DNA of 64,000 nucleotides from Phormidium tenue FACHB-1050 (lineage in GTDB: Bacteria; Cyanobacteriota; Cyanobacteriia; Pseudanabaenales; Pseudanabaenaceae), in NCBI RefSeq assembly GCF_014696925.1, contig NZ_JACJQY010000010.1:1-64000 (forward strand), written 5' to 3'. Position numbers and translations under genes: made by a program. The notes below the pieces were generated by a model. The model had not been told where the DNA came from. It saw only the letters and a list, made by a program, of their open reading frames with translations, and searched no databases. Of this stretch, positions 44,140-48,951 are shown piece after piece. The first letter of the stretch is position 1. Each line of letters opens with the position of its first letter.

Positions 44140-44775
44140 TCAGGAAGCTATTATACCTTGAGGAGTAGAACCTAGAGAAATTTCGTCGCCAAAGCTGATT
44201 TTTTTGGTGAATTGAAAGGCTCCTGCGATCGAACCCCACACCCGTTCATCGGTGACCAAATCATAGCCACGATCAAGGCTGCTATAGCTATTCTCAGTCA
44301 CTTCAAACTCAATCGAGAGATAGGTATCGACACCCTTGCGATTAATGCAGCACTTTTTCCCAGGCTCGACAGTGCCTTTAAAAGTAAGCTGATCGGCGCG
44401 ATGTACCCATTGCGTACAGCCTTGCAATTGGGCGATCGCATTTGCATCCATCTCCTTGAGCTGATCGCGATCGCGACTAGCACCAAAGAATTTTTCGGCA
44501 TCTGTAAGACGATAGTTGATGATTTCAATGCGATCGTTTTGAAAGATCAGGTGTAAGACTGCTGTGCGATAGGGATGATGTAGCTCATAGTCGTAAGCTT
44601 GCTCAAGAAATAGCCATACTCCATCCTCAGTAATCGGGTTGGGCAAGGTACGGATACCAACGCGGATATGGGCAAAAAATGGGGGGTTATCGATCGCTTG
44701 TTCCCAATTACTATGATCGCCTGCTAGCCATTGAGCAAGGACATATACATCATTGGGATGGGTAAGTACTGTCAT
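44140..44775 (-). CDS. cpcT: Phycobiliprotein lyase, CpcT/CpeT type
   Basis: 211 residues. T-type lyases attach phycocyanobilin (or phycoerythrobilin) to the beta-subunit Cys-153 position of phycobiliproteins. Conserved features are LAQWLAGDHSNWEQA near the N-terminus, PFFAHIRVGIRTLP, VWLFLEQAYDYELHHPYR and GCTQWVHRADQLTFKG. A 10-stranded beta-barrel is expected. It proves a phycobilisome-bearing cyanobacterium. Whether it is the CpcT or CpeT subtype cannot be fixed without comparison; no phycobiliprotein genes are adjacent. Confidence 0.88.
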   Translation of the reverse strand: MTVLTHPNDVYVLAQWLAGDHSNWEQAIDNPPFFAHIRVGIRTLPNPITEDGVWLFLEQAYDYELHHPYRTAVLHLIFQNDRIEIINYRLTDAEKFFGASRDRDQLKEMDANAIAQLQGCTQWVHRADQLTFKGTVEPGKKCCINRKGVDTYLSIEFEVTENSYSSLDRGYDLVTDERVWGSIAGAFQFTKKISFGDEISLGSTPQGIIAS

Positions 44776-44857: not shown

Positions 44858-44913
44858 AAGGAACCCGATTTTCGATGGCGCGGCGAAGCCGCGCCATCGA
44901 AAATCGGTTCTTT
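44858..44913. repeat. MITE-like palindrome, GGAACCCGATTTT family
   Basis: About 26-bp arms AAGGAACCCGATTTTCGATG.. around GGC-GAA-GCC. Flanks TTAGGGTTCTGCGATTTGAT and TTTACGGTGAAGCCCTTAG match the deleted copy at 59381-59440. In the cpcT-desaturase divergent region. Confidence 0.8.
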
Positions 44914-45073: not shown

Positions 45074-46096
45074 ATGACCTACTCTGTGGGAATCCCTAAG
45101 TCTATGAAAACACAACAATTCTCAGACAAGGACAATTTTAGACTTGAGCAATCTGCTCATGATGGCGAGACAGCAAAACCAAAACTTGCTCCCGAACTTC
45201 TTAAACAATTACATAGCCTCGATCAACATCCGCACCGTTTGCCCATTTTCATTGCTTTGTACATAGTTTCGGCATTGGCAGCCTATGCGTTAGTACAGGC
45301 GATCGCTACACCTTGGTCTTATGTATTCTGTTTACCCCTGTATCTTTTGGCAGCAGCTTCTTTGCATGGTATTAGCCTGTTTACCCATGAGGGAGTGCAT
45401 GGCGTACTCAGTCGCAATCTGCAATGGAATCGGTGGCTGAGTATTCTTTGTGCTTTACCCGTTGGGCAAAATTTCTCCGCTTATAAAGTCTTACATCTTA
45501 AGCATCATCAACACTTAGGTGTAGAGGGAGATCCCGATCATTACAAAAACTATACAAAATGGAACTGGTTAACCTTTTTGATGCATTGGGGAAGATTGAT
45601 AATTGGTTATCCTGTCTATATTGTGGCGATTCCGATTCTTGGCTTTTGGCAGGGAAATCATAGCGATCGCCTTTGGATTGCGATCGAAGTGGGCTTGCTA
45701 GGCTTATTAGTTACGACTGTGTTACTTTCCCCTCTACCTCCAGCTTTGCTAATTCATGGTTGGCTAATTCCGATGCTGTGGATTAACACGATGGTGAATA
45801 TTCGCGGCATGAGTCAGCACACACTCCTCGAACATGAAGCAGATTTAATTCGCGGAACTCGCACGATTCTGACAGTTCCCTTAGTGCGATTCTTTATGTG
45901 TAATGAGAACTATCATCTAGAACATCATCTCTATCCAGCCGTGCCTTGGCATCATTTACCACGCTTGCATCAAGAGTTGAAATCAGATCTGATCCAACGG
46001 GGTGCACCTTATATTCCTTCCTATTTTTCTTTTGTGCAAGACTTCATCTCGGCAAGCTGGCAGCGTCGGCAAGTCGGTTCCGTTGTGATTAATTGA
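45074..46096 (+). CDS. Membrane fatty-acid-desaturase-like di-iron enzyme
   Basis: 340 residues with several membrane helices (about 55-110, 175-240) and the three histidine boxes HEGVH, HLKHHQH and ENYHLEHHLYP. These define the integral-membrane desaturase/hydroxylase superfamily, which uses oxygen and ferredoxin-type electrons. It is not a close match to DesA/B/C signatures that I recall; a hydroxylase or ketolase reaction is possible. First gene of the cluster with the HDO, DUF3419 and GNAT genes. Its last codons VVIN-stop lie within a 10-bp target-site duplication of a small inserted element. Confidence 0.8.
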   Translation: MTYSVGIPKSMKTQQFSDKDNFRLEQSAHDGETAKPKLAPELLKQLHSLDQHPHRLPIFIALYIVSALAAYALVQAIATPWSYVFCLPLYLLAAASLHGISLFTHEGVHGVLSRNLQWNRWLSILCALPVGQNFSAYKVLHLKHHQHLGVEGDPDHYKNYTKWNWLTFLMHWGRLIIGYPVYIVAIPILGFWQGNHSDRLWIAIEVGLLGLLVTTVLLSPLPPALLIHGWLIPMLWINTMVNIRGMSQHTLLEHEADLIRGTRTILTVPLVRFFMCNENYHLEHHLYPAVPWHHLPRLHQELKSDLIQRGAPYIPSYFSFVQDFISASWQRRQVGSVVIN

Positions 46097-46244
46097 TGTT
46101 ACGTGGAACTCAGATGGTGAATCTCTTGCTAGTAAAGAAGCAGGGCAACCACAGGGGATTGCCCATACCCATTTCCGTAGGGGCTGTGCCCCCGTGCCAG
46201 CCCCCAACCTATGCTATTGCAGGAATTCCTTCCATGTAACGTCA
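46095..46244. mobile_element. 150-bp MITE-like element with 10-bp target duplication
   Basis: Ends GA(T/C)GTTAC(G/A)TGGAA in inverted orientation (14 bp, two mismatches). GTGATTAATT occurs immediately outside both ends (46085-46094 and 46245-46254), a clear target-site duplication. The inside holds GGGCAACCACAGGGGATTGCCC and GTAGGGGCTGTGCCCCCGTG in two hairpins, a pattern common in cyanobacterial intergenic repeats. It sits between the first two genes of the putative biosynthetic operon. Confidence 0.85.
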
Positions 46245-46270
46245 GTGATTAATTAAGTAGAGAGAGAAAT

Positions 46271-47005
46271 ATGCAAACTTTAATCAGAAAACCGATCGCT
46301 AATCCTAGAATTCGGCAATATCCTGAATTGGCTATAGCTGATTTGAGCAAATTACCATCTTTGCAGTCAGCAGTTTTACGGGTAGCAGAAGTTTATGACT
46401 TTAATTTCCATCCCTATATCCTTTGGATGGAAGATCCTCTGACCGATCGCGATGCTTTTCGGCAAAGTCAAGTTCCCTTTCGGTTTGCAGTAGAGTCATT
46501 CTCTCAGCCATTGGCGGCAGTATTAGCCAGAACCACAACCCTAGAATATCGATTGCCTCTGCTTGCAAATATCACTGAAGAACATGGACATGGCGATCGC
46601 TGGCGATCGCATAAATATACGTTTCAGCAATATCTTCGCGCCTTGGGCGTAACTGATCGCGAACTAGATGCTACCTGCACGATGCCAGTATTAGCCTTTA
46701 ACCAATCGATTTTGACATATTGCTTAATGCAGTCGGGTGAATCAGGAGCGGCGATGCTTGGCATGATCGAGTATCTCTATGTCGGGATTAGCACCGCTAT
46801 CGCTAGGACTTTGCAACAACGTGGTTGGACGGCTACTGGCAGTCAGTCCCACTATGCAGTGCATGAGAAGTTAGATACCGAACATGCCAGAGACTTGCTG
46901 CATTTAGCAGAAATGGGTTGGATGAATCCCTGTTCTCGAGAGCAAGTTGTCCAAGGATTAGCGCTGGGCGCTCACTATTTTTGGAGTTTGTATCGTGATT
47001 TGTAA
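46271..47005 (+). CDS. Haem-oxygenase-like di-iron protein (HDO/TenA fold)
   Basis: 244 residues, all-helical. Candidate metal ligands lie in NITEEHGHGDRW (about 95-105), MIEYLYVG (about 165) and HEKLDTEHARDLL (about 198-210), which fits the Glu/His/Asp pattern of iron-containing haem-oxygenase-like oxidases (UndA/BesC/SznF-like). Such enzymes cleave C-C bonds, hydroxylate or desaturate amino or fatty acids. Its substrate is unknown. It overlaps the DUF3419 gene by 11 bp, so the two proteins are translationally coupled. Part of the 45.1-48.9 kb cluster. Confidence 0.75.
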   Translation: MQTLIRKPIANPRIRQYPELAIADLSKLPSLQSAVLRVAEVYDFNFHPYILWMEDPLTDRDAFRQSQVPFRFAVESFSQPLAAVLARTTTLEYRLPLLANITEEHGHGDRWRSHKYTFQQYLRALGVTDRELDATCTMPVLAFNQSILTYCLMQSGESGAAMLGMIEYLYVGISTAIARTLQQRGWTATGSQSHYAVHEKLDTEHARDLLHLAEMGWMNPCSREQVVQGLALGAHYFWSLYRDL

Positions 47006-48089
47006 CTTGAAGGCTAGCCCCGTCTCAGAAATTGCGTTCTCACAAGTACGCGAAGATCCTCGCATTGAATTACGGGTCATCCAAAAACTAGCAAAGTATC
47101 AGCGACCACTCAGAATCCTTTTGGTGGCTTCAGGTGGTTGTACAGCCCTCAGTTTACTAACTAGCCCTGCGATCGCCAAAATCGAAGCCGTAGATCTCAA
47201 TCCCGCCCAACTACATCTTGTGGAATTGCGCCGACAAGCCCTATTGCATTTGCCGCTAGATGCACAATTACGATTGATTGGAGCCGATCAAGCTGCTAGC
47301 GATCGCGATCGCCTCAGCATCTATGCCAACTTACGAGCCTATTTGCCGAAACCCACCCAAGCATTTTGGGATGCTAGACAGGAGCAAATCGCCTTTGGAG
47401 TCAATCGAGTGGGACGATTTGAGCAGCTATTTCGCGAACTTGCTACAAAATTTGCTCAGCTTGGGATTGCTCCTTTAAAAGAACCCTTAACCGCAATTCA
47501 ACATCCACAATGGCGCAATCTGTTTGAGCAGGTATTTGAACGGGAGAGACTTGTCCTAACTTTCGGTGAAGCGGCAGTTAACTATTCGATGGATCGCAGT
47601 TTTGGCGAACATTTTGCTGATGTATTTGCCCAAGCTTTGCAGCGTTTCAATCCCAGAGAAAATTATTTTTTAACCCAAGTCTGGGGCGATCGCTACACCA
47701 ACGATCTTGCAGGTGAAGGATTACCTCTATATCTCCAAGACTCCTCTCAGAAAGATATTCGGGAACTAGGAACAGAAAGATTACAATTGCATCAGGGGGC
47801 ATTTGTCGATCGCCTTCAGCAACTTGCCGAAGTGGAAAAATTCGATTTGATTCAGTTTTCTAATATTTCCGACTGGATGCCTTTGAGCGATCTTCATCAA
47901 ATGTTGACGGATGCGATCGCTTGCTTGAAATTAGGAGGAGCGATCATTGGGCGGCGGCTCAATGGCGATCATCATTTAGCCGCAGTCATGGCGGAGCGTA
48001 TAGCCGTTGATCACAATCTTAGTCAGGAATTATTATCAAGCGATCGCTCATTTTTCTATCGTGAAGTTGTAGTAGGTTTTCAGTCATGA
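46995..48089 (+). CDS. DUF3419 protein, BtaA-like aminocarboxypropyl transferase
   Basis: 364 residues, GTG start inside the preceding gene. It resembles DUF3419/BtaA proteins, SAM-dependent enzymes that transfer the 3-amino-3-carboxypropyl group (BtaA acts on diacylglycerol for betaine lipids). The SAM-binding region is ILLVASGGCTALSLL with VDLNPAQLHLVELRRQALLHLP split here; the C-terminal half has LIQFSNISDWMPLSD and GGAIIGRRLNGD. No BtaB methyltransferase is nearby, so ordinary betaine-lipid synthesis is not indicated. It overlaps the GNAT gene by 4 bp. Confidence 0.75.
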   Translation: MICNLKASPVSEIAFSQVREDPRIELRVIQKLAKYQRPLRILLVASGGCTALSLLTSPAIAKIEAVDLNPAQLHLVELRRQALLHLPLDAQLRLIGADQAASDRDRLSIYANLRAYLPKPTQAFWDARQEQIAFGVNRVGRFEQLFRELATKFAQLGIAPLKEPLTAIQHPQWRNLFEQVFERERLVLTFGEAAVNYSMDRSFGEHFADVFAQALQRFNPRENYFLTQVWGDRYTNDLAGEGLPLYLQDSSQKDIRELGTERLQLHQGAFVDRLQQLAEVEKFDLIQFSNISDWMPLSDLHQMLTDAIACLKLGGAIIGRRLNGDHHLAAVMAERIAVDHNLSQELLSSDRSFFYREVVVGFQS

Positions 48090-48889
48090 AGTTTCATCGT
48101 GTTGAATTAGCCGAGCGTTCTTTATTTCAAGTCGGCATTGAGGCGATCGAGCAGACTGCGTTCTATCCATTGGGAAACGACTCGTTCCAAATTGATCATG
48201 GTGATAACTACTTTGCCTTTTTTGATCGCCTTGGCGATGTCAATTACTTTGTTGCCTTGGATGGTGAGAGGGTCGCCGCAGTTGGTGCTGGCATTCTTCG
48301 GCAAGTAACCGATCTCCAAGGAGAATCGTCGCGTTTAGCTTGGTATTTATGCGATTTAAAAGTGCATCCAGACTATCAGAGACAATATCTTTCGATGAGG
48401 CTCCTGCATTATGCTTTACAGTCCTGTGTGAGTAAATGCGATCGCGGTTATACGATTTCGATGAACACCAGCGATGGCAAGCCCAATCGGTTGGTGCGTA
48501 TTTATGAGAAGTTTAACCTTTTGCGATTCCGATGCTCATCGATATTAGGGATCTACAGTGTAGACGAGTCCACTATGCGATCGCTGGAACCGATACTAAT
48601 AAAATATCGCGGTAAGATTTCCTATCTATCTCTGCAAGGAATTAAGGATTTAAAGCTCCAAAGTAATGGAAAAATGCTGCCATTGCTGCATGTGCAGTGG
48701 GGCGAAAACATGCAACTAGAGATTGAGACTCCGCTAGCTGGATATACCCATATGTTTTGTGTACCTAGTGGCGATCAACTCGCGATCGCATTGGGAACCA
48801 AAGAGATTTTCCCCAATGCGACGGCTAGTTTGGTCAGTCATGGAATGAATCAATGTGATTGGCGATTTGTTTTAACTAGCGATATTTAA
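48086..48889 (+). CDS. GNAT family N-acetyltransferase
   Basis: 267 residues. The N-terminal 150 residues have the GNAT core: ALDGERVAAVGAGILR, CDLKVHPDYQRQYLSMRLLH (the acetyl-CoA pyrophosphate loop) and MNTSDGKPNRLVRIYEKF. The remaining 115 residues are an additional domain of unknown role. ATGA-type overlap with DUF3419 makes it part of the same operon. It may acylate an amine such as the 3-amino-3-carboxypropyl product; this is inference. Its stop codon TAA is the first part of TAATACCAA, the palindrome-associated sequence. Confidence 0.8.
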   Translation: MKFHRVELAERSLFQVGIEAIEQTAFYPLGNDSFQIDHGDNYFAFFDRLGDVNYFVALDGERVAAVGAGILRQVTDLQGESSRLAWYLCDLKVHPDYQRQYLSMRLLHYALQSCVSKCDRGYTISMNTSDGKPNRLVRIYEKFNLLRFRCSSILGIYSVDESTMRSLEPILIKYRGKISYLSLQGIKDLKLQSNGKMLPLLHVQWGENMQLEIETPLAGYTHMFCVPSGDQLAIALGTKEIFPNATASLVSHGMNQCDWRFVLTSDI

Positions 48890-48894
48890 TACCA

Positions 48895-48951
48895 AGCGAA
48901 GTATGGGTTTGTTTCCCCGCCGAAGGCGGGGAAACAAACCCATACTTCGCT
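48895..48951 (+). terminator. Perfect palindrome, 27-bp arms
   Basis: Left arm starts AGCGAAGTATGGGTTTGTTT, core CCGCC-GAA-GGCGG, right arm exact. It begins 6 bp after the GNAT stop and probably ends the cluster transcript. Confidence 0.9.

What the first reader, a model, noticed from the sequence alone, without database searches (positions are those of the whole stretch)
45074..48889. Putative biosynthetic operon: desaturase, HDO oxidase, DUF3419 transferase, GNAT
Last three genes overlap (11 bp and 4 bp) and the first is just upstream, separated by a recent MITE. Together they encode a membrane di-iron oxygenase, a haem-oxygenase-like di-iron oxidase, a SAM aminocarboxypropyl transferase-like protein and an acetyltransferase. 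A reasonable pathway is transfer of the aminocarboxypropyl group to a lipid or small acceptor, oxidative tailoring by two iron enzymes and N-acylation. The absence of BtaB argues for a product other than the known betaine lipid.
Basis: inference. Interest (0 to 1): 0.8.

Follow-up and report, generated by a model that had tools for sequence, protein, structure and literature searches.

The report
Uncharacterised four-gene cyanobacterial biosynthetic cassette
Four neighbouring genes in a Pseudanabaena cyanobacterium, kept together as a unit in scattered cyanobacteria, probably make an unknown small molecule or lipid from the amino-acid part of S-adenosylmethionine, but no product is known yet.

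Summary
Window 45074-48889 encodes a membrane desaturase/hydroxylase (DES), a haem-oxygenase-like di-iron protein (HDO), a DUF3419 protein and a GNAT, on one strand, with 11-bp and 4-bp overlaps and a recent MITE between DES and HDO. The set is a real unit: of 17 DUF3419 loci found in named genomes, 12 carry all four genes in the same order, 4 are cut by contig ends and 1 lacks DES and HDO. All four genes are under purifying selection. The HDO-DUF3419-GNAT core also lies, in another order, beside an MmpL transporter on a Mycobacterium riyadhense plasmid. DUF3419 belongs to the BtaA-containing family but forms its own clade, is no nearer to BtaA than to other DUF3419 groups, and the genome has no BtaB. 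HDO keeps a full 3H/3C di-iron ligand set but not CADD's sacrificial Tyr/Lys. DES is neither RtxC nor GntB. Best reading (0.40): a compact pathway in which DUF3419 transfers aminocarboxypropyl from SAM, HDO and DES oxidise the product, and GNAT acylates it. Chemistry and product are inferred; a lipid product, or a DUF3419 with other SAM chemistry, is not excluded. No description in print was found in the searches made.

The parts
45074..46096 (+). DES: membrane FA_desaturase-superfamily hydroxylase/desaturase (340 aa); histidine boxes HEGVH, HLKHH and HLEHH
   Evidence: The boxes' histidines are unchanged in all 14 aligned proteins; one row has HLDHH for HLKHH.
46094..46244 (.). MITE-like insertion at the DES stop codon; 15-bp terminal inverted repeats (13 of 15), 9-bp target duplication 46085-46093 / 46245-46253
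   Evidence: 39 matches in own genome, window copy and partial copies included; spacers of relatives; repeat ends
46271..47005 (+). HDO: haem-oxygenase-like di-iron oxidase/oxygenase; 3H/3C ligands by alignment to CADD: E103 (or E104), H114, E167, H198, D202, H205
   Evidence: best fold CADD, TM-score 0.76 by query and 0.86 by target
46995..48089 (+). DUF3419 (PF11899): SAM-dependent transferase of the BtaA-containing family, 364 aa, GTG start, 11-bp overlap with HDO
48086..48889 (+). GNAT-superfamily acyltransferase (267 aa), 4-bp ATGA overlap with DUF3419
48895..48951 (.). Perfect palindrome (27-bp stem, GAA loop) after the GNAT; one of a repeat family in the genome
44865..44907 (.). Perfect palindrome (20-bp stem, GAA loop) upstream of DES; its 13-bp core occurs 24 times in the genome; also scores as a terminator-like site

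Best explanation
A compact biosynthetic cassette for an unknown metabolite, with no NRPS or PKS gene in it. SHOWN: a four-gene unit kept in order in scattered cyanobacteria, with an HDO/DUF3419/GNAT core also found on an actinobacterial plasmid. INFERRED: (1) DUF3419 moves the 3-amino-3-carboxypropyl (ACP) group from SAM onto an O or N nucleophile of an acceptor, as its family member BtaA does on diacylglycerol, giving a homoserine ether or diaminobutyrate-type amino acid. (2) HDO, with a 3H/3C di-iron site, oxidises that amino acid (N-oxygenation, desaturation or C-C cleavage). (3) DES, an accessory step, hydroxylates or desaturates a C-H. (4) GNAT acylates the free amine, to finish the product or to mask it in the producer. 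A small amino-acid-like product is slightly favoured over a membrane lipid.
For: Order kept: 12 of 17 genome-contig loci have all four genes; 4 are cut at a contig end (L016, L020, L022, L027); 1 (L017) has only DUF3419-GNAT. Three more cyanobacteria have all four and one has three. Flanking genes recur mainly within close relatives. DES at E<=1e-40 was found in 14 of the 31 genomes searched: 14 of the 16 with the GNAT at E<=1e-20, and 0 of the other 15. dN/dS 0.08-0.16 in all 16 comparisons (four genes, four Pseudanabaena relatives). M. riyadhense plasmid: DUF3419 25% (3e-20), HDO 34% (3e-39), GNAT 28% (1e-14), next to an MmpL transporter. DUF3419 matches PF11899 at 130.8 bits along nearly its length, and shares QxxED, SGGC, NYF, DWM and mostly DRSxxY with two BtaB-linked BtaAs. 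HDO ligands invariant in 18 of 18; the fold matches CADD, HrmI, BesC and UndA among others.
Against: No enzymology or product. DUF3419 is a separate clade (99/99), its relation to BtaA is unstable, and the residues it shares with BtaA are no more than it shares with other DUF3419 groups of unknown function (BtaA pair 45 of 156 columns, twelve other pairs 50-57). Its fold is that of SAM methyltransferases in general and says nothing of the group transferred. Three cyanobacteria carry an HDO relative with no DUF3419 or GNAT in the stretches read, so HDO need not act on a DUF3419 product. The GNAT has no close relative of known function in the searches made. The mycobacterial DUF3419 sits on a very long branch and lacks the QxxED region in the alignments. 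An MmpL neighbour would fit a lipid at least as well.
Confidence: 0.4

Rival explanations
1. DUF3419 is not an ACP transferase here but a methyltransferase or a SAM cyclase (azetidine-2-carboxylate or homoserine lactone type); HDO, DES and GNAT act on a different scaffold.
For: The fold is the general SAM-methyltransferase fold; the only sequence match in PDB for the profile is a methyltransferase (4isc, E 2e-4); separate clade from BtaA and no special residue likeness to BtaA.
Against: Nearly full-length PF11899 match at 130.8 bits, whereas plain methyltransferase models match only partially and under cut-off; the one family member with known chemistry in the review read (BtaA) transfers ACP.
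Confidence: 0.25
2. The product is a membrane lipid: DUF3419 adds ACP to diacylglycerol or another lipid alcohol, the membrane DES and HDO modify acyl chain or head group, and GNAT N-acylates the homoserine amine, giving a betaine-lipid relative that is not N-methylated.
For: DUF3419 family membership; DES is a membrane protein family; the M. riyadhense core lies beside an MmpL transporter, a family that often exports lipids (recalled); no BtaB in the genome.
Against: An N-terminal extension of about 30 residues in the R. leguminosarum BtaA is missing; neither DES nor HDO is nearest to a known lipid enzyme; patchy presence in 9 of 26 congeneric genomes is unusual for a core membrane lipid.
Confidence: 0.22
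3. The four genes are a genomic neighbourhood of partly independent functions, for instance a stress oxidase (HDO) with a detoxifying GNAT, rather than one pathway.
For: Stand-alone HDO relatives in three cyanobacteria and in six Streptomyces plasmids (the three read have no DUF3419 or matching GNAT beside it); DES is missing in G523 and in the mycobacterial locus.
Against: Conserved order across several families, overlapping starts, and near-strict co-occurrence of DES and GNAT (exceptions G018 and G523).
Confidence: 0.1

Closest known systems
BtaA (SAM:diacylglycerol 3-amino-3-carboxypropyl transferase), reference Rhizobium leguminosarum DUF3419 with adjacent BtaB (L058)
   Same: PF11899 family; shared QxxED, SGGC, D67/N69, NYF, DWM and mostly DRSxxY positions
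   Different: 26% identity; about 30 residues of N-terminal extension missing; no BtaB; own clade; no closer to BtaA than to other DUF3419 groups
HDO superfamily, nearest structure CADD (self-sacrificing pABA synthase)
   Same: Fold (TM-score 0.76/0.86) and 3H/3C ligand set
   Different: CADD Tyr27 and Lys152 positions (papers) are not Tyr/Lys in any of 18 members (positions by the alignment)
RtxC (rhizobitoxine desaturase) and GntB (guanitoxin arginine hydroxylase)
   Same: Same FA_desaturase superfamily; RtxC also has an HLEHH third box
   Different: Only 29% and 26% identity over parts, while RtxC and GntB are 35% identical to each other; far under the GntB model cut-off (68 vs 380 bits)
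M. riyadhense plasmid locus DUF3419-HDO-GNAT-MmpL
   Same: The same three families, each a homologue of a cassette gene
   Different: Order DUF3419-HDO-GNAT, no DES in the stretch read, MmpL transporter beside it; annotated with family names only

Membership tests
BtaA | PF11899 over gathering score along nearly the full length | tested here: met
   130.8 bits vs 28.2, residues 12-360 of 364
BtaA | Groups with BtaB-linked BtaA in a tree | tested here: inconclusive
   cassette clade 99/99, separate from L058/L062; cassette+BtaA (with L054 and Mycobacterium) against the other 24 rows only 88/72, and lost in the rebuild
BtaA | Residue likeness to BtaA above that to other DUF3419 groups | tested here: not met
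   of 156 cassette-conserved columns the two BtaAs match 50 and 52; 14 of the other 26 non-cassette rows match 54-87
BtaA | BtaB partner in the operon or genome | tested here: not met
   None in the operon; own genome best match 22 bits
BtaA | Transfers ACP from SAM to diacylglycerol | not testable with these tools
   Needs an enzyme assay
HDO superfamily | HO-like helical fold with 3H/3C ligands | tested here: met
HDO superfamily | Dinuclear metal site and O2-dependent oxidation | not testable with these tools
   Needs spectroscopy and an assay
CADD/PabS pABA synthase | Sacrificial Tyr27 and Lys152 | tested here: not met
   By the alignment they fall on positions 50 and 177, never Tyr and never Lys in the 18 rows; residues from papers
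GntB arginine hydroxylase | NF041365 over curated cut-off | tested here: not met
   68 bits vs 380
RtxC desaturase | Clearly nearer to RtxC than to other desaturases | tested here: not met
   63 bits to RtxC, against 82 bits to an uncharacterised Streptomyces clavuligerus protein and 57-72 bits to several others
GNAT superfamily | Acetyltransferase Pfam model over cut-off | tested here: met
   PF13527 28.4 vs 25, PF00583 24.6 vs 20.7; narrow margins

The most novel reading that the evidence does not exclude
The cassette founds a class of SAM-derived 'homoserine-ether' (or diaminobutyrate) natural products made without NRPS or PKS, in which an ACP group put on by a BtaA relative is then desaturated or N-oxygenated, for example to an oxyvinylglycine- or hydroxamate-type antimetabolite. 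It would be shared by cyanobacteria and, in a three-gene form, an actinobacterium.
Probability: 0.13. Interest if true: 0.78.

Novelty: new variant of a known kind. Interest (0 to 1): 0.5.

Why it matters
Few ACP transferases acting on small molecules are known; the 2023 review read here in passages (PMC10491745) names BtaA among those not homologous to NAS, MtNAS, CntL and MccD. A DUF3419 protein in a compact, patchily distributed cassette with an HDO and a membrane oxygenase could extend that chemistry to a new product class, or show that DUF3419 does something else. Four genes, three of them with overlapping ends, are small enough to rebuild in one experiment, so the question is directly testable.

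Tried and rejected
RtxC/vinylglycine membership of DES: I fetched rtxC of P. phymatum pBPHY02 and compared it. DES is no nearer to it than to other desaturases, so the label was dropped and vinylglycine kept only as part of the novel case. GntB membership was rejected. CADD/pABA synthase was rejected. NCBIfam gave no family for DUF3419 or GNAT; PDB had no sequence match at E<=1 for DES or GNAT, and only three weak ones for the GNAT profile. Viral contigs: none of 50 and 73 candidate stretches confirmed. Streptomyces HDO plasmids: no DUF3419 or matching GNAT beside HDO in the three read of six. A Streptomyces 'BtaA family' plasmid hit has no annotated HDO beside it. Flanking genes gave no constant transporter or partner (nine genes from eight loci, four of them without a Pfam family).

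Dropped rows: the DUF3419 tree used 47 rows and left out 10 loci as duplicates, short or cut pieces (script), and L055 did not reach the profile search; the quick rebuild also left out L059 and L061. The desaturase comparison used partial or no reading frames for several of the host's other desaturases. Foldseek and VIA rows for DUF3419 list SAM-dependent enzymes in general, mostly methyltransferases with some spermidine synthases; that BtaA or another known ACP transferase is not among the 50 rows shown is no evidence against.

Papers: PMC5789663, PMC8064604, PMC10491745, PMC13185094, PMC13108848 and PMC11965152 were read in found passages only; all others were seen only as search listings. 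The absence of a description in print rests in the open library only; (DUF3419) gave four papers, none judged by its listing to describe such a cassette, and searches listed only the first 20 of 1,582 and 15 of 26 papers. CADD metal-ligand numbers (E81, H88, E142, H174, D178, H181) and 'MmpL often exports lipids' are recalled.
Full report
OBSERVATION. Pfam assigns FA_desaturase, Haem_oxygenas_2, DUF3419 and, narrowly, GNAT acetyltransferase models. Upstream and divergent is a CpeT-family gene, 44140-44775 (-). The window is the start of contig 2 of a 5.6-Mb genome. Its nearest named relatives are Pseudanabaena.

THE MITE. The 174-bp DES-HDO gap contains a repeat with 39 matches in the host genome, the window's own copy and partial copies included; the longer copies are about 71-81% identical. 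The element spans 46094-46244, with 15-bp terminal inverted repeats (13 of 15 match) and an exact 9-bp duplicated target, and it begins at the DES stop codon. Four Pseudanabaena relatives (L012-L015) have only a short purine-rich spacer there. The insertion is recent and leaves both reading frames intact.

IT IS A UNIT. A scan of genome contigs with DUF3419 gave 17 loci. Twelve have DES-HDO-DUF3419-GNAT in that order. L016 and L027 are two contigs of one assembly, each ending inside or beside the cassette; L020 and L022 begin just upstream of HDO; and L017 has DUF3419-GNAT only, with about 8 kb upstream in hand. So 12 of 17 are complete, 4 of 17 are undecidable because of contig ends, and 1 of 17 lacks DES and HDO. 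Further genomes add three complete cassettes (L090, L091, L092) and one without DES (L093); two other stretches (L096, L097) repeat L020 and L021. Flanking families recur mainly within close relatives (the Calothrix group; L014, L015 and L017; the window and L012), and a few recur more widely but not next to the cassette. In one search, DES at E<=1e-40 occurs in 14 of 31 genomes: in 14 of the 16 with the GNAT at E<=1e-20, and in none of the other 15. The two exceptions are G018 (HDO lost too) and G523 (three genes). In the genus, 9 of 26 genomes have cassette DUF3419 and the same 9 have the GNAT. In a class sample, 19 of 388 genomes have a GNAT match at E<=1e-3, of which 3 are weak. In another, 66 of 378 have an HDO match at E<=1e-3, most of them weak; 17 exceed 100 bits, and 14 of those 17 are genomes with the cassette GNAT. 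Pairwise dN/dS between the window and four Pseudanabaena relatives is 0.08-0.16 for every gene; synonymous sites are saturated against Symplocastrum in three of the four genes, and HDO gives 0.09 there.

BEYOND CYANOBACTERIA. A plasmid of Mycobacterium riyadhense carries DUF3419, HDO and GNAT in a row, followed by an MmpL transporter. The three proteins match the window's at 25% (3e-20), 34% (3e-39) and 28% (1e-14), and that plasmid is the only hit at E<=0.01 for the window GNAT among 72,556 plasmid records. No DES is annotated there. This makes HDO-DUF3419-GNAT the likely core and DES an accessory. Against a strict core, HDO relatives at 57%, 43% and 36% identity stand alone, in the stretches read, in three cyanobacteria, the last being nearer to the mycobacterial HDO (50%). 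Six Streptomyces plasmids have HDO relatives too, and the three I read show no DUF3419 beside them.

DUF3419. It matches PF11899 along nearly its full length. In a 47-row tree the 19 cassette rows form one side of a branch with 99/99 support, and two BtaAs with adjacent BtaB form another group (BtaB adjacency). Cassette plus BtaA, with L054 and the mycobacterial row, is separated from the other 24 rows only at 88/72, and this is lost when two long rows are removed. At 45 positions the cassette is at least 90% conserved and both BtaAs are identical to it, including QxxED, SGGC, D67 and N69, NYF (223-225), DWM (293-295) and most of DRSxxY (350-355). This is not special to BtaA: of 156 cassette-conserved columns the BtaAs match 50 and 52, while 14 of the other 26 non-cassette rows match 54-87, and twelve other pairs of comparable divergence share 50-57 against 45 for the BtaA pair. 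The R. leguminosarum BtaA has about 30 more residues before the shared ED. The AlphaFold model (pLDDT 79.6) has the general SAM-methyltransferase fold with no telling match. The host genome has no BtaB (best 22 bits). ACP transfer is therefore a family-level inference, and the usual betaine-lipid product is unlikely.

HDO. Ligand positions aligned to CADD (E103 or E104, H114, E167, H198, D202, H205) are invariant in 18 of 18 proteins, including the mycobacterial and one Streptomyces relative. The model (pLDDT 86.5) matches CADD best and then PqqC, TenA, HrmI, BesC and UndA among others. CADD's sacrificial Tyr27 and Lys152 (passages) fall on positions 50 and 177 by the alignment, which are never Tyr or Lys in the 18 rows. 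So by ligand set it looks like a substrate-oxidising HDO, not a pABA synthase.

DES AND GNAT. DES has HEGVH, HLKHH and HLEHH boxes, with the histidines unchanged in 14 of 14 aligned proteins. It is one of ten FA_desaturase matches in the genome. It is about equally far from RtxC (29%), GntB (26%), a Streptomyces clavuligerus protein (26%) and others, while RtxC and GntB are 35% identical to each other. The GNAT has conserved sequence through its C-terminal half and a degenerate acyl-CoA loop as I read; no close relative of known function was found.

MECHANISM. I commit, at 0.40, to a compact pathway: DUF3419 moves ACP from SAM to an O or N acceptor, HDO oxidises the resulting amino acid, DES adds a further C-H oxidation where present, and GNAT acylates the amine. 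The operon, its conservation and the di-iron ligand set are shown. The group transferred, the order of steps, the acceptor and the product are inferred. A DUF3419 that does not transfer ACP (0.25) and a lipid product (0.22) remain open. The first of these rose, and the main reading fell from 0.45, because of the control.

NOVELTY. Searches of the open library for DUF3419, for BtaA with ACP terms, for the family combination and for HDO with cyanobacterial terms showed no description of this cassette in their listings. All enzyme families are known, but the combination appears to be unreported within those limits. I rate it a new variant of a known kind (a small oxidative biosynthetic cassette), interest 0.5.

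Noticed in passing
48895-48951 and 44865-44907: Both ends of the operon carry long perfect palindromes with a GAA loop. The 3' one belongs to a repeat family (76 matches listed, both strands of palindromic copies counted); the 13-bp core of the 5' one occurs 24 times against 0 for the reversed pattern.
   Followed up: partly
L017 (G018, L142): A Pseudanabaena genome keeps DUF3419 (shortened 5' end) and GNAT but lacks HDO and DES, with the same flanking families as L014 and L015, which have the full cassette: a decaying copy.
   Followed up: partly
L094, 6571-6855 (-): Only a C-terminal GNAT remnant is seen in G435, a genome of the same genus as cassette-bearing G443.
   Followed up: no
L066, L067, L068: HDO relatives on three Streptomyces plasmids each lie 130 bp downstream of an EF-hand protein gene, a possible conserved pair.
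   Followed up: no
L140, 5375-6118: A stand-alone cyanobacterial HDO (G568) is 50% identical to the M. riyadhense HDO but only 36% to the window's, which suggests transfer between phyla.
   Followed up: no
L061 and L060: Other uncharacterised DUF3419 operons: one with a ketoacyl-ACP synthase III and a CoF synthetase-like gene (Rhizobium), one with UbiA, PEP-binding and AMP-binding genes (Roseinatronobacter).
   Followed up: no
L098, 5107-6177: A DUF3419 39% identical to the cassette type in a genome of the same phylum but not the same class, with no HDO, GNAT or DES match on its 7-kb contig; it shares the most cassette-conserved columns of any non-cassette row (87 of 156, as L054).
   Followed up: partly
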